From Flavobacterium sp. (lineage in GTDB: Bacteria; Bacteroidota; Bacteroidia; Flavobacteriales; Flavobacteriaceae): 64,000 nucleotides of DNA. The stretch covers positions 124,001-188,000 of the forward strand of contig JAIXSK010000028.1 of NCBI GenBank assembly GCA_027484725.1, given 5' to 3'. A model generated the notes under the pieces. That model saw only the letters and a list, made by a program, of their open reading frames with translations. It made no database searches and was not told where the DNA came from. Positions within the stretch are counted from its first letter, which is position 1. Every line of letters starts with the position of its first letter. Of the stretch, positions 4,735-52,037 are shown in pieces. A program made the translations under genes and the position numbers.

Positions 4735-4783
4735 GATTAACGATTGTTGATTGTTGATTTTTGATTGTTGATTTTTGATTGTT
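4735..4783. repeat. Heptanucleotide tandem array (GATTNTT), 7 units
   Basis: gattaac gattgtt gattgtt gattttt gattgtt gattttt gattgtt. Confidence 0.9.
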
Positions 4784-4898
4784 GAAGTAAAGATATCAGT
4801 AGCTGACAACTATAAACTGTCAACTTTTGGTAAAGTTTTGTCTATCATTTTCAATCGTAAAATAAAAAGTCTATTTTTATGGTTCTTAATCAACGGCC

Positions 4899-37945: not shown

Positions 37946-38461
37946 ATGAACATGAAAAAAACAGCGTTGCTCGGTTTGGTTTTATTGGTTTTTAGCTTCG
38001 GATGCGAAAAAGACGACATCTGTAGCGAGACCACACCTACTACTCCGCGTCTGATTATTGATTTTTACGATTTTACCAATCCGACCTTGACCAAAAACGT
38101 CACCAATTTGGCCATCATTGGCGAAGGAATGACCACGCCATACGAAACCTACAATGGTGTAAGCAAGATTCAAGTGCCGCTGGATGTTGCACAAAATCTA
38201 TCCAAATATCAGTTTGTGCTCAATTACGACAACAGTAATCCGGATTTTGTCAATACTGATTTGATGGAATTTGATTACAGTCGTTCACAAGTATACGTTT
38301 CTAGAGCTTGCGGATACAAAACTTTGTTTACTTTAAGCAACACTACGCCATTTATTCATACTGATGCTACCACACCTGATGGTTTGTGGATGCGCAATAT
38401 CACCGTTGTTCAACCAGCCATTTCCAGCGAAAATGAAACACACCTTGAGATTTCTTTTTAG
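37946..38461 (+). CDS. DUF6452 family lipoprotein
   Basis: Lipobox VFSFGC; 'CSETTPTTPRLIIDFYDF'. Confidence 0.75.
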   Translation: MNMKKTALLGLVLLVFSFGCEKDDICSETTPTTPRLIIDFYDFTNPTLTKNVTNLAIIGEGMTTPYETYNGVSKIQVPLDVAQNLSKYQFVLNYDNSNPDFVNTDLMEFDYSRSQVYVSRACGYKTLFTLSNTTPFIHTDATTPDGLWMRNITVVQPAISSENETHLEISF

Positions 38462-39161
38462 TTTGCTGATGCTGGGATCAACCGTTGTTTTGGCACAAGA
38501 CAAAGCAGCAAAACCCAAAGATTCGGCGGCGGTTAAAACCAATCGATATGGCATTCGCGCGGGTGTTGATTTGTTTAAAATTGCCCGTTCATCTTATGAA
38601 AAAGACTACAAAGGTTTTGAAGTAGTGGGCGATTATCGTTTGACCAAAAAATACTATCTCGCCGGTGAAATCGGAAATGAAAACAAAACCACCGATGACG
38701 ACCGTCTCAACTTTACCACCAAAGGAACGTATTTTAAAGTAGGTTTTGATTATAATTTATATGAGAATTGGCTCGACATGGAAAACATGGTTTACATCGG
38801 TATGCGCTATGGTGTGAGCGCCTTTAGCCAAACCTTGAACAGCTATAAAATCTATGATCGATATCAATATTTTACACCTACACAAACCATTGAGTCCGGC
38901 GAAAAATTTGACGGCTTATCAGCGCAATGGGTAGAAGTCGTAGCCGGAGTCAAAGCCAAAATCATCAACAATTTCTATTTAGGCTTTAGCTTTAGAATCA
39001 ACAAACTCGTGAGCAACAAAAAGCCCGACGGTTTTGACAATTTATACATTCCGGGTTTTAACCGCACTTATGACGGAACCTTTGGCGCGGGATTCAATTA
39101 TACGCTTTCGTATATGATTCCGATATATAAGAAAAAAGTTCCGGTGAAAATTACGAATTAG
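38433..39161 (+). CDS. DUF6048 family protein
   Basis: Signal peptide MKHTLRFLFSLLMLGSTVVLAQ; 'GIRAGVDLFKIARSSYEKDYKGFEVVGDYRL'; overlaps the 3' end of the preceding gene. Confidence 0.78.
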   Translation: MKHTLRFLFSLLMLGSTVVLAQDKAAKPKDSAAVKTNRYGIRAGVDLFKIARSSYEKDYKGFEVVGDYRLTKKYYLAGEIGNENKTTDDDRLNFTTKGTYFKVGFDYNLYENWLDMENMVYIGMRYGVSAFSQTLNSYKIYDRYQYFTPTQTIESGEKFDGLSAQWVEVVAGVKAKIINNFYLGFSFRINKLVSNKKPDGFDNLYIPGFNRTYDGTFGAGFNYTLSYMIPIYKKKVPVKITN

Positions 39162-39394
39162 AAATTACGAATTACGAATGAGTGATCAGGCGTTTTTATT
39201 GCGTAACGTCTTTTGGATTCAGCAGATGATTTTCAAAAATTACGAATTAGAAATTACGAATGAGTGATCAGGCGTATTTATTGCGTAATGTCTTTTGGAT
39301 TGAGCAGATGATTTTCAAAAATTACGAATTACGAATGAGTGATCAGGCGTTTTTATTGCGTAATGTCTTTTGGATAGAGCCGATTATTTTCAAA
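39147..39394. repeat. Tandem direct repeat (82 and 75 bp spacing): partial copies of the IVP ORF 3' end separated by ATTCGTA-type heptamers
   Basis: 'gagtgatcagg' at 39180, 39262, 39337; each copy encodes LKII(C/G)(S/*)IQKTLRNK(N/Y)A* on the minus strand; heptamers between copies. Confidence 0.92.
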
Positions 39395-39699
39395 AGTTCA
39401 TTGGCTTCATACATCAAACTTTCGCTTTCTACTTTATCGATATAATTTGTATCTGTCAATAATCTAATCCAAAAAAGTGTTTCTCTGGCTTCTTTGTATG
39501 CAATAGAAAGTTTAGACAAAAAGTCTTTTTCAGACTGACCTCCAATCGCTTCTTCAATATTAGCTGCAATCGAAGTACCTGATCGAAGCAGTTGCTTGCT
39601 TAATATGTACTCTTTATTATTCTCGCACAATTGTTTGTATAAATTGACAATCCTGACAGCAAAAGCATAACTCTTCATTTGCACGATATTTTCCTTCAT
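39343..39699 (-). CDS. Four helix bundle protein (23S rRNA-intervening sequence protein family, TIGR02436/PF05635-like)
   Basis: 'SYAFAVRIVNLYKQLCENNKEYILSKQLLRSGTSIAANIEEAIGGQSEKDFLSKLSIAYKEARETLFWIRLL' family signature. Confidence 0.93.
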   Translation of the reverse strand: MKENIVQMKSYAFAVRIVNLYKQLCENNKEYILSKQLLRSGTSIAANIEEAIGGQSEKDFLSKLSIAYKEARETLFWIRLLTDTNYIDKVESESLMYEANELLKIIGSIQKTLRNKNA

Positions 39700-39705
39700 A
39701 CACAA

Positions 39706-39817
39706 ATTCGTAATTTAAAATTTACAATTCGTAATTCGTAATTTAAAATTTACAATTCGTAATTCGTAATTCGTAATTCGTAATTCGTAATTCGTAATTC
39801 GTAATTCGTAATTATTT
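39706..39817. repeat. Heptanucleotide array: 15 units (ATTCGTA/ATTTAAA/ATTTACA; last 8 are perfect ATTCGTA) plus an edge ATTATTT
   Basis: Direct heptad-by-heptad reading 39706-39810. Confidence 0.95.
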
Positions 39818-40048
39818 AATTTTCCTAAACCCTTTCATAAAAATCCAGCGCATGAAAATGTGCTCGCCATCATTGGTTTTAACCGCTTGAAATTGCGGAG
39901 CCAATAACGTTCCGGCCACAAAAGCCGTAAACATCAGCCACATGCCTGATAAGTGTGAATAGGATTTAAGAATCAATTGCAATCCGATAAAAATAGATCC
40001 AAACGAAAGCAGTTGAAAAATAAGTGCACGTATTTGTAGTTTGGTCAT
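39812..40048 (-). CDS. Small membrane protein, hypothetical
   Basis: 78 aa with two hydrophobic segments; 2 bp downstream of the RlmL-like gene. Confidence 0.7.
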   Translation of the reverse strand: MTKLQIRALIFQLLSFGSIFIGLQLILKSYSHLSGMWLMFTAFVAGTLLAPQFQAVKTNDGEHIFMRWIFMKGFRKIK

Positions 40049-40050
40049 GA

Positions 40051-41223
40051 TTAATTTTCTTTGTAGTTAGGGTTAAACTTCGCCCGCTTGCTGCCTTCAT
40101 ACATTTCGTACTTCACCAAACGCGCTTCGAGGCTTCCGTTGTAAAGTTTAATTTTGCGCGAGGGTTTAAGCCCGACAAACTTCAAAGCTTCTAAGTTGGC
40201 GGTAATAAACCAAGCGTGCGTTCCGGGGTAATTTTGTTTTAAGGTATCGCCTATTTCACGGTAAAAACGCTCCATTTCAATGTCTAAACGTTCGCCATAC
40301 GGCGGATTAAAAACCATGTGCAACGGGCCTTGCGTTTCTTTTTGTGTATCAAAAAAGTTGCGCTCTTGCACCGTAATATATTCGCTCAAATTGGCATTCT
40401 CTATATTGTCTTTGGCTTTGCTTACAGCACTGGGCGCTTTGTCATAACCTTTAATAGTATACCTGAATTCGCGCGTGCGGTTGAGCAATGAATCGGTAAC
40501 TTTGTCAAACAAATCAGCATCCCAATCCGGCCATTTCTCAAAGGCAAATTCTCGGCGGTTGATGTTGGCCGGAATATGACACGCAATCATCGCAGCTTCA
40601 ACCAACAAAGTTCCGCTCCCACACATCGGATCCAGAAAATCACTCTGTCCGTCCCAACCCGAAAGCAACAACATCCCAGCGGCCAAAACTTCATTAATCG
40701 GTGCTATATTGGTGGCGGTTCTGTATCCGCGATGGTGCAACGAAGCGCCGGAAGTATCAAGCGAAACCGATACCTGATCGCGATCAATATGCACGTGAAT
40801 ACGCAAATCCGGATGTTCTTTTTCAATGCTTGGTCGCGCTCCGGTTTTGCTGCGGAACTGATCTACAATGGCATCTTTGGTTTTGAGCGCCACAAACTGA
40901 GAATGTGTAAAATGCTCAGAATGCACCGTTACATCTACCACAAAAGTTTGGTGGTCGAGCAAGTATTTTGACCAATCCACATCAGAAATTCCTTTGTACA
41001 AAAGCGTTTCATTAAAAGCCCGAAAACGGTGAATGGGTTTGAGAATCTTCAGCGCCGTACGCAAAGCCAAATTAGCCTTGTACATAAAACCTTTGTCGCC
41101 TTTAAAGTTCACCACGCGCAATCCGGCTTGAACGTCTTGTGCGCCCAAAGCTTTGAGTTCGGCAGCCAGGATTTCTTCAAAACCAAAAAAGGTTTTGGCC
41201 ACCATTTTAAAATTATTTTCCAT
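40051..41223 (-). CDS. THUMP domain class I SAM-dependent RNA methyltransferase (RlmL-like)
   Basis: THUMP N-terminus; 'DFLDPMCGSGTLLVEAAMIA', 'MVFNPPYGERL'. Confidence 0.93.
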   Translation of the reverse strand: MENNFKMVAKTFFGFEEILAAELKALGAQDVQAGLRVVNFKGDKGFMYKANLALRTALKILKPIHRFRAFNETLLYKGISDVDWSKYLLDHQTFVVDVTVHSEHFTHSQFVALKTKDAIVDQFRSKTGARPSIEKEHPDLRIHVHIDRDQVSVSLDTSGASLHHRGYRTATNIAPINEVLAAGMLLLSGWDGQSDFLDPMCGSGTLLVEAAMIACHIPANINRREFAFEKWPDWDADLFDKVTDSLLNRTREFRYTIKGYDKAPSAVSKAKDNIENANLSEYITVQERNFFDTQKETQGPLHMVFNPPYGERLDIEMERFYREIGDTLKQNYPGTHAWFITANLEALKFVGLKPSRKIKLYNGSLEARLVKYEMYEGSKRAKFNPNYKEN

Positions 41224-41288
41224 TGTAAAATCAGGTAATCGGTGCAAAAATAGTCTAAATTTGCCCTCGAAATTGATTCAAGTAACAA

Positions 41289-42804: not shown

Positions 42805-42865
42805 AGACACGCTCCGCTCTAGACACGCTCCGCTACAGACACGCTGCGCTACAGACCCCTGCGCT
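42805..42865. repeat. 16-bp tandem repeat, 3 copies plus a partial
   Basis: agacacgctccgctct / agacacgctccgctac / agacacgctgcgctac / agacccctgcgct. Confidence 0.9.
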
Positions 42866-42912: not shown

Positions 42913-42947
42913 ATCAACAATCGTTAATCTTCAATCGTTAATCATTA
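42913..42947. repeat. Heptanucleotide array, 5 units (ATCNNNA)
   Basis: atcaaca atcgtta atcttca atcgtta atcatta. Confidence 0.85.
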
Positions 42948-43145
42948 CAGACCGATGCGCTTGAGGACAAAAGGGACGTAAGATGATTCATCGCTGAATC
43001 AAACCATAGAAAACGCTGCGCGAGTGGACATCTCGATTGTTCAAAAACTTTGCGCCTTTCCAAGCAAAATTCCCTACTTTTGAGTCTTTGAAAATAACAA
43101 CATTTATTCCGCTGCCCTCTATACAATTCGGCAGTAACTTGGCCC

Positions 43146-43208
43146 AACATAAATCATTCAACATACAACATTCAACATACAACATTCAACATACAACATT
43201 CAACATTC
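43146..43208. repeat. Heptanucleotide array, 9 units (AACATWC), in the murQ leader
   Basis: aacataa atcattc aacatac aacattc aacatac aacattc aacatac aacattc aacattc. Confidence 0.93.
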
Positions 43209-43218
43209 AAAATAACAA

Positions 43219-49755: not shown

Positions 49756-49858
49756 AAAGTTTTGCCTAGTTTATTGCCAAGTCTACCTATGTGTTTATTT
49801 AGTTATTCTAAATCATTCTTTTAGTCGTGAAAACTTCTAGAAACTTTGTGTTCCAAGA

Positions 49859-51709: not shown

Positions 51710-51883
51710 GGTATAAAAATCGAATAGCACGCTAATTTAAGGCATCGCTTCTGATTTTAAAAGGTATGAGAATCAAAGTTATCAAACGGATATTGACAAT
51801 GAATAACGATGCTGGGTTGTGGTCGCACGAAACAAAAAACTTCACAAACCACGAGTCATTTATCTTTCATCAATCATTTGTAT

Positions 51884-52023
51884 CGCCCCGGATGGCAGCA
51901 AAAAGCATTGAGCCCAAAAAAGCTTTTTTGCCGACTGAAAAAAGCGACCGCAGAAGCGCTTTTGAAGCCGAGCAAAAAAACGTATTTTGGGCTTAATCTT
52001 GGCGCGAACAGCCGGAAATGGCG
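51884..52023 (+). repeat. Structured intergenic element, copy D (expanded loop)
   Basis: CGCC-CCGG...GAGCCCAAAA...TTTTGGGCTT...CCGG-aaat-GGCG; internal GCTTTTTT...AAAAAAGC hairpin. Confidence 0.65.
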
Positions 52024-52037
52024 CCCTAAAACGAAAA

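What the first reader, a model, noticed from the sequence alone, without database searches (positions are those of the whole stretch)
39147..39817. Candidate uncharacterised mobile element: IVP/four-helix-bundle ORF bounded by inverted heptamer arrays
Read on the minus strand, the order is (TACGAAT)-type array, four-helix-bundle ORF of the 23S rRNA-intervening-sequence protein family, then (ATTCGTA)-type array. The heptamers on the two sides are in inverted orientation, like terminal inverted repeats built from a 7-mer. The unit sits between two unrelated convergent genes, and both stop codons touch the arrays: TAG at 39159-39161 lies inside the left repeat, TTA at 39812-39814 in the edge heptad. 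Established: this family occurs in insertions within 23S rRNA genes and is structurally related to the Avd accessory protein of diversity-generating retroelements. Inference: the ORF plus arrays is a non-autonomous mobile unit here located outside rRNA.
Basis: partly seen in the sequence, partly recalled or inferred. Interest (0 to 1): 0.82.

Follow-up and report, generated by a model that had tools for sequence, protein, structure and literature searches.

The report
S23 gene with cognate repeat arrays
A small, conserved bacterial gene of unknown job sits between mirror-image arrays of a 7-base repeat, and this turns out to be the rule for its whole family: each gene has its own repeat, which is also scattered elsewhere in the same genome, so the protein probably recognises that repeat.

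Summary
Window 39343-39699(-) is an S23/23S-IVP four-helix-bundle gene (PF05635, TIGR02436) between inverted AATTACG heptad arrays. It is not a one-off. In 20 Flavobacterium-type genomes 78% of 81 S23 genes have matched inverted arrays against 1.4% of 847 control genes. Distant bacteria, including other phyla, show the same (51% against 3.5%). The repeat unit (period 7 or 8) differs between elements, is the same on both sides of one element, and follows the S23 clade. Copies of the same unit without the gene lie scattered in intergenic DNA of the same genome and are nearly absent elsewhere. For example, CTAAGnnn x3 occurs 4-95 times in six S23-clade genomes and 0 times in the other 35. Solo arrays are mostly inverted pairs (19 against 0 of opposite polarity). 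S23 is under purifying selection (dN/dS 0.05-0.14). At the window's site 43 of 46 scorable species lack the gene, and in five of them the stop codons abut. Reverse transcriptase in trans is not needed. Best reading: a slow, mostly vertically kept S23 plus cognate-repeat system that works like REPIN-RAYT but has no transposase. It generalises the 23S rRNA intervening sequence. Recognition of the repeat by S23 and the movement step are inferred.

The parts
39343..39699 (-). S23/IVP four-helix-bundle gene (PF05635, TIGR02436), 118 aa from ATG (TTG at 39705 is the longer mechanical start)
   Evidence: solved relative 2rld (E 6.5e-32); dN/dS 0.14 against sister species G138
39705..39813 (-). 5' array of the S23 gene: 15 heptads reading AATTACG (and TTAAATT/GTAAATT variants) towards the gene; eight perfect units at 39754-39809
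   Evidence: about 4 units in sister species G138
39147..39342 (+). 3' array of the S23 gene: AATTACG/AATTAGA heptads at 39149-39176, 39238-39258, 39320-39333, inverted relative to the 5' array
39163..39319 (-). two extra tandem copies (82 bp 39163-39244, 75 bp 39245-39319) of the ORF's 3' end plus heptads; the third copy is the ORF's own end (39320-39395)
   Evidence: absent from G138, so a recent local duplication
38430..39161 (+). left neighbour, DUF6048 gene (PF19515, E 6e-99); its TAG stop lies in the array
39812..40048 (-). right neighbour, conserved 78-aa ORF without a Pfam family; its stop touches the array
40051..41247 (-). RlmL-like rRNA methyltransferase gene (UPF0020, THUMP)
42805..42865 (+). 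solo array GACACGCTCCGCTNNA, same unit that brackets another S23 gene of this genome (L002/L083, G000:C38)

Best explanation
The unit is one member of a widespread class: a gene for an S23 protein bracketed by inverted arrays of about 4-5 copies of a short repeat (period 7 or 8, conserved core plus variable bases) that is specific to that S23 clade. SHOWN: the architecture; the match of both arms; the coupling of unit to S23 clade; dispersed solo copies of the same unit in the same genome, mostly as inverted pairs in intergenic DNA; purifying selection on the protein; long syntenic persistence with presence/absence and orientation differences between species. INFERRED: S23, a homopentamer in its solved relatives, binds its cognate array, one core per subunit or so, as DNA or RNA; the inverted pair is the unit that is occasionally copied to new intergenic sites with or without the gene inside, the S23 protein acting in trans and host enzymes doing the cutting and joining. 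It works like a REPIN-RAYT pair (resident gene plus population of hairpin repeats), with a non-enzymatic oligomer in place of the transposase. The classical 23S rRNA intervening sequence would be the same element landed in an rRNA gene.
For: Inverted arms: 78% of 81 S23 loci against 1.4% of 847 control genes, Fisher p 2e-68; 51% against 3.5% in 80 distant loci, p 1e-18, with Ignavibacteriae, Chloroflexota, Planctomycetes and other MAGs. Periods 7/14 in 34 and 8/16 in 17 of 63 arms sets, flat in background; CTNAG arrays have 4 units in 35 of 58 and spacing 8 in 169 of 170. Unit follows protein: Mantel r 0.42, p 0.0005; 29 of 30 loci of the window's clade (57-93% aa identity, 8 different neighbourhoods) keep an AATTnnn heptad. 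Solo copies are cognate: GACACGCTNCGCTNNAGACACG 13 in G000, 0 in 40 others; GCTGAGNNNCTGAGNNNCTGAG 24 in G000, 7 and 5 in two others, 0 in 38; CTAAGNNN x3 51/20/80/95/92/4 in the six other genomes with the LLIWQKSM clade, 0 in the other 35; ATTCGTAATTCGTA 27 in G000 and 11 in G013, 0-2 in 39 others and enriched in 35 clade genomes of 250 (mean 6.1 against 0.75, p 2e-7). Solo arrays: 19 pairs '+ then -', 0 '- then +'; 17 of 17 CTNAG solos outside ORFs. dN/dS 0.05-0.14. Site data. Pentamer: 2rld with five chains and PMC4990558.
Against: No binding, excision or insertion was observed. Most close S23 pairs between species are syntenic, so movement of the gene is rare. The gene-repeat link is not absolute: 13 of 35 clade genomes lack the exact 14-mer and 8 of 215 others have 5 or more; G022 has CTGAG solos without a clade gene found (MAG 86% complete). 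No catalytic domain in the unit and no clear target-site duplication. The k-mer test in sampled DNA is weaker (12 of 63 elements rank first among 20 genomes, p 0.004).
Confidence: 0.6

Rival explanations
1. RNA-level module: the arrays are binding or processing sites in transcripts (3' UTRs, terminators, IVS-like RNase III stems) that S23 binds to control RNA stability or termination; dispersal of arrays is a by-product of recombination and selection.
For: 23S IVS RNAs have complementary ends cut by RNase III, and Coxiella's S23 ORF is preceded by tandem GACAGAT heptads (PMC4990558); arrays often touch stop codons and bracket intrinsic terminators at the DUF6048 site in six species.
Against: No excess of G-U-preserving changes between arms in sense RNA (48 against 80 in the other direction); solo arrays are not consistently in sense orientation to genes (5 sense, 12 antisense upstream neighbours); no Rfam family at the locus.
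Confidence: 0.2
2. Retro-mobile element served by a reverse transcriptase in trans, S23 acting like Avd of diversity-generating retroelements.
For: S23 and bAvd are related families (L006 matches both PF22296 and, weakly, PF05635); the window has tandem 3'-end copies like 5'-truncated insertions.
Against: No PF00078 match in G008, G012, G013, G019 (99% complete) with 2-6 S23 genes; the host's DGR Avd has no arrays; the tandem copies are absent from G138 and look like local duplication.
Confidence: 0.06
3. The arrays are ordinary slipped-strand microsatellites next to a conserved gene, without any relation to S23.
For: Arrays are the main indel sites between window and G138 (3 of 4 indels of 10 bp or more in aligned blocks, plus the two arms).
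Against: Slippage cannot give matched inverted arms of element-specific sequence, clade-linked units or genome-specific solo families of fixed size and polarity.
Confidence: 0.03
4. The S23 gene is a resident host gene whose product regulates or protects its own repeats at DNA level (a nucleoid-type or replication-fork role, like a partition or anti-hairpin protein), and the repeats are spread by another, unseen enzyme such as a RAYT or PD-(D/E)XK (GxxExxY) nuclease.
For: Strong purifying selection and synteny; GxxExxY nuclease genes have the same inverted-array architecture in 4 of 4 cases found; RAYT-like genes are present in the genus (L111).
Against: GxxExxY arrays have other periods and units; no partner gene is linked to S23.
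Confidence: 0.11

Closest known systems
Intervening sequences (IVS) of 23S rRNA genes with S23 ORF (Leptospira, Coxiella)
   Same: Same protein family; ORF between complementary ends; Coxiella's IVS has tandem heptamers (GACAGAT) before the ORF (PMC4990558).
   Different: Here the unit lies between protein genes, not in rRNA; the ORF is under purifying selection whereas Coxiella's is decaying; solo cognate arrays are dispersed in the genome.
REPIN-RAYT systems
   Same: Vertically kept gene flanked by, and associated with, a population of short inverted-repeat hairpins dispersed in intergenic DNA (PMC8049555). A RAYT-like gene in G007 (L111) is picked up by the same flank test.
   Different: S23 has no HUH/Y1 transposase domain; arrays are tandem 7-8-mers rather than one REP palindrome; unit differs by clade.
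TAACTGA heptamer repeats of Beggiatoaceae, Cyanobacteria and Bacteroidetes (MacGregor 2015, PMC4679880)
   Same: Abundant intergenic tandem heptamers with unknown agent.
   Different: Described without inverted pairing or any S23 link (the paper has no mention of S23); candidates proposed there were S1, Csp and CsrA.
Diversity-generating retroelement Avd / bAvd (PF22296)
   Same: Distantly related four-helix-bundle pentamer.
   Different: Avd sits with a reverse transcriptase and variable repeats and has no flanking arrays in this genome (L006).
GxxExxY proteins (TIGR04256, PDDEXK_3)
   Same: Also bracketed by inverted short-repeat arrays, 4 of 4 cases here.
   Different: Unrelated protein, a predicted nuclease; repeat periods about 9-11.

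Membership tests
PF05635 / TIGR02436 (S23, 23S rRNA IVP) | profile score above curated cut-off over the full length | tested here: met
   98.2 bits against 33.8, residues 5-109; 109.2 against 24
23S rRNA intervening sequence | S23 ORF between complementary ends | tested here: met
   inverted AATTACG arrays
23S rRNA intervening sequence | location inside a 23S rRNA gene | tested here: not met
   lies between DUF6048 and a 78-aa ORF/RlmL; no rRNA match
23S rRNA intervening sequence | excision from RNA by RNase III | not testable with these tools
   needs RNA work
REPIN-RAYT | gene encodes a HUH (Y1) transposase | tested here: not met
   only PF05635 found
REPIN-RAYT | gene flanked by inverted repeats that also occur dispersed as inverted pairs | tested here: met
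REPIN-RAYT | gene kept at the same locus across species | tested here: met
   most close pairs syntenic; six species at the DUF6048 site
Diversity-generating retroelement | reverse transcriptase, template and variable repeat nearby | tested here: not met
   the genome's RT genes are on C9 and C23, none at the locus on C22; window protein does not match PF22296
DNA transposon / insertion sequence | transposase in the unit | tested here: not met
   single ORF, PF05635
DNA transposon / insertion sequence | target-site duplication | tested here: inconclusive
   TAATTAC at both outer ends in G013 matches the empty site in G014/G018/G052, but is itself the array unit

The most novel reading that the evidence does not exclude
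A transposase-free repeat-propagation or repeat-recognition system: S23 pentamers read a clade-specific 7-8 bp repeat code, and each S23 lineage founds and maintains its own genome-wide family of inverted short-tandem-repeat hairpins. This would explain heptamer repeats of many bacterial genomes and the origin of 23S rRNA intervening sequences, with the nuclease family GxxExxY running a parallel system.
Probability: 0.35. Interest if true: 0.92.

Novelty: new variant of a known kind. Interest (0 to 1): 0.8.

Why it matters
S23/IVP proteins are common in bacteria and have no known function; heptamer repeats in Bacteroidota, cyanobacteria and giant sulphur bacteria have no known agent. The data link the two: gene and repeat predict each other genome by genome. 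That makes the function of S23 directly testable (bind the protein to its own repeat against another clade's), gives a source for 23S rRNA intervening sequences, and offers a second, transposase-free comparison to REPIN-RAYT. If the code is real, hundreds of natural protein-repeat pairs are available to read it.

Tried and rejected
Reverse transcriptase in trans: rejected as a need. Sense-RNA stem under selection: no G-U signal. Arrays as sense 3'-UTR elements only: orientation mixed (few cases). First alignment A1 too diverse for a collection scan; A2 worked. Sampled k-mer test gave only a modest effect. A first solo census by regular expression found no AATTnnn or TTAGTnA solos in the sampled loci. 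Literature: nothing linking S23 genes to flanking repeats among the open papers searched; subscription papers were not covered. No structure prediction was run, since a solved relative exists.

Full report
WHAT IS THERE. The window holds, at 39147-39817, an ORF of the S23 / 23S rRNA-intervening-sequence-protein family (PF05635 98.2 bits, cut-off 33.8; TIGR02436 109 bits, cut-off 24) with heptad arrays on both sides in inverted orientation. The likely start is ATG 39699. The left side is more complex than described: it contains two extra tandem copies, 82 and 75 bp, of the ORF's 3' end plus heptads. The sister species G138 (85-95% DNA identity, collinear over the window) has the same element at the same site with 93% protein identity, but only about four heptads on the right and no tandem copies. 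So the long array and tandem copies in the window are recent local expansion. ATTCGTA is 3.6 times more frequent than expected in the window and none of 100 shuffles reaches the count.

THE PATTERN IS GENERAL. The own genome has six PF05635 hits. By eye three others sit between inverted arrays of quite different units: an octamer CTGAGnnn, a 16-mer GACACGCTnCGCTnnA, and GTTTAnnnn. I took 81 PF05635 loci from 20 genomes and aligned each left flank to the reverse complement of the right flank. A local score of 16 or more is reached by 78% of S23 loci, 1.4% of 847 other genes in the same DNA and 2.9% of cross-paired flanks (Fisher p 2e-68 against the other genes). In 80 further loci from named genomes, mostly other Bacteroidota with a few from Ignavibacteriae, Chloroflexota, Planctomycetes, Verrucomicrobia and others (mostly MAGs), it is 51% against 3.5% (p 1e-18). 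The best period of the arms is 7 or 14 in 34 and 8 or 16 in 17 of 63 sets; background is flat. For the CTNAG family the number of units is mostly four (35 of 58 arrays) and the spacing is 8 in 169 of 170. These are arrays of defined size, unlike free-running microsatellites. One of the few control genes that scored is a RAYT-like Y1 transposase gene between REP-like palindromes (L111), a positive control for the method; another is a GxxExxY gene (see below).

THE UNIT BELONGS TO THE S23 CLADE. Array similarity rises with S23 protein identity (Mantel r 0.42, p 0.0005). In the window's own clade, 29 of 30 loci with proteins 57-93% identical to the window's keep an AATTnnn heptad in both arms, although they lie in eight different gene neighbourhoods. 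Noncoding DNA at that divergence would not be expected to stay recognisable, so the core is either selected or renewed by a process tied to the element (inference).

SOLO COPIES ARE COGNATE. Whole-genome exact searches over 41 genomes, with the reversed pattern as control, gave: GACACGCTNCGCTNNAGACACG 13 in G000, 0 in 40 others; GCTGAGNNNCTGAGNNNCTGAG 24 in G000, 7 in G009, 5 in G022, 0 elsewhere; CTAAGNNNCTAAGNNNCTAAG 95, 92, 80, 51, 20, 4 in G008, G015, G006, G004, G005, G009 and 0 in 35 others (reversed controls are 0 to 20 per genome). Those six and G000 are the seven genomes in which an S23 of one syntenic clade (LLIWQKSM, 72% or more to a reference) was found. G022 is the exception: five CTGAG solos and no clade gene found in its six S23 loci (86% complete MAG). 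ATTCGTAATTCGTA: 27 in G000 and 11 in G013, the two with an AATTACG-flanked clade gene, 0-2 elsewhere. In 250 genomes of the genus the 35 with a window-clade S23 have a mean of 6.1 copies against 0.75 (p 2e-7); 8 of 215 others have five or more, so the link is strong but not exclusive. Within the LLIWQKSM clade the unit itself has changed by species (CTGAG, CTAAG, ACAAAG) at one syntenic locus, and the solo copies have changed with it. Solo arrays lie between genes (0 of 17 CTNAG solos inside ORFs) and mostly as inverted pairs with the polarity of the S23 arms: 19 pairs '+ then -', none '- then +', spacers 8-143 bp. That is the layout of REPINs.

THE LOCUS. Between DUF6048 and the small convergent gene, 46 species could be scored: 43 have no S23 gene, and in five of these the two stop codons abut directly (TAA|TTA or TAA|TCA, gap 0). 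Six species bracket the intrinsic terminator there with CTNAG arrays, at least one has other heptads, and three have the S23 element. A wider search adds three more carriers; in two of the six (G013, G184) the gene is in the opposite orientation. In G013 the outer ends read TAATTAC, the sequence of the empty site in G014, G018 and G052, but since this is also the array unit a target duplication cannot be claimed. Gain, loss and inversion are therefore all seen at this site between species; the events themselves are old.

THE PROTEIN IS FUNCTIONAL. dN/dS is 0.05-0.14 in six close pairs. A solved relative with five chains (2rld) matches the window protein at E 6.5e-32, and the Xanthomonas S23 is a homopentamer of four-helix bundles (PMC4990558).

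HOW IT MOST LIKELY WORKS. Shown: the architecture, the coupling of unit to clade, cognate solos, purifying selection, slow turnover. Inferred: S23 pentamers bind their own array; an inverted pair brings two bound arrays together as a hairpin or looped complex; rare copying of the pair, with or without the gene, to intergenic sites follows by host enzymes. No catalytic domain is present in the unit, so the chemistry must come from elsewhere. The closest working analogy is REPIN-RAYT, where a vertically kept gene maintains a population of hairpin repeats (PMC8049555). It fails REPIN-RAYT membership because there is no HUH transposase. The closest relative by descent is the 23S rRNA intervening sequence, and the Coxiella IVS has tandem GACAGAT heptamers before its S23 ORF, which fits the same architecture; its 3' end was not examined here. 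The location criterion for an IVS is not met.

Reverse transcriptase (PF00078) is missing from four 99%-complete genomes with 2-6 S23 genes. The genome's own DGR Avd (L006, bAvd PF22296, beside an RT gene on C9) has no arrays. An RNA stem under selection finds no support in the G-U test, although an RNA role is not excluded.

NOVELTY. Full-text searches found no paper linking S23 genes with flanking repeat arrays. MacGregor 2015 described TAACTGA heptamer arrays in several phyla and left the agent open, without mention of S23. The library holds open papers only. I call it a new variant of a known kind (IVS-like unit outside rRNA, with REPIN-like dispersal), with a fair chance that it is a kind of its own.

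Noticed in passing
L314:10477-10854 (-) (G138), opposite window 49763-49824; also L253, L137, L257: GxxExxY genes (TIGR04256, PDDEXK_3 predicted nuclease) are bracketed by inverted arrays of other short repeats (period about 9-11) in 4 of 4 cases; in G138 one is an 823-bp block where the window has 62 bp.
   Followed up: partly
window 43145-43214: Array of CAACATT/CAACATA heptads with no cognate S23 gene identified in this genome; differs in length from sister species G138.
   Followed up: no
window 4742-4785 and 42919-42947: Further heptad arrays GATTGTT and AATCGTT; GATTGTT-type units also lie beside the S23 genes L005 and L133.
   Followed up: no
L006 (G000:C9:1-2408): A diversity-generating retroelement region: bAvd (PF22296) beside a reverse transcriptase, with variable-repeat-like sequences.
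   Followed up: no
L079 (G000:C22:82500-88500): Stretch with several different array families intermixed and repeated about every 400 bp, a possible graveyard or hot spot of solo arrays.
   Followed up: no
DUF6048 site in G006, G008, G015, G059, G066, G074 (L184, L179, L181, L173, L185, L183): CTNAG arrays sit on both sides of an intrinsic transcription terminator that other species have without arrays (only one arm is seen in G015).
   Followed up: partly
window 51810-52037: The sister species has about 5.7 kb where the window has 228 bp.
   Followed up: no
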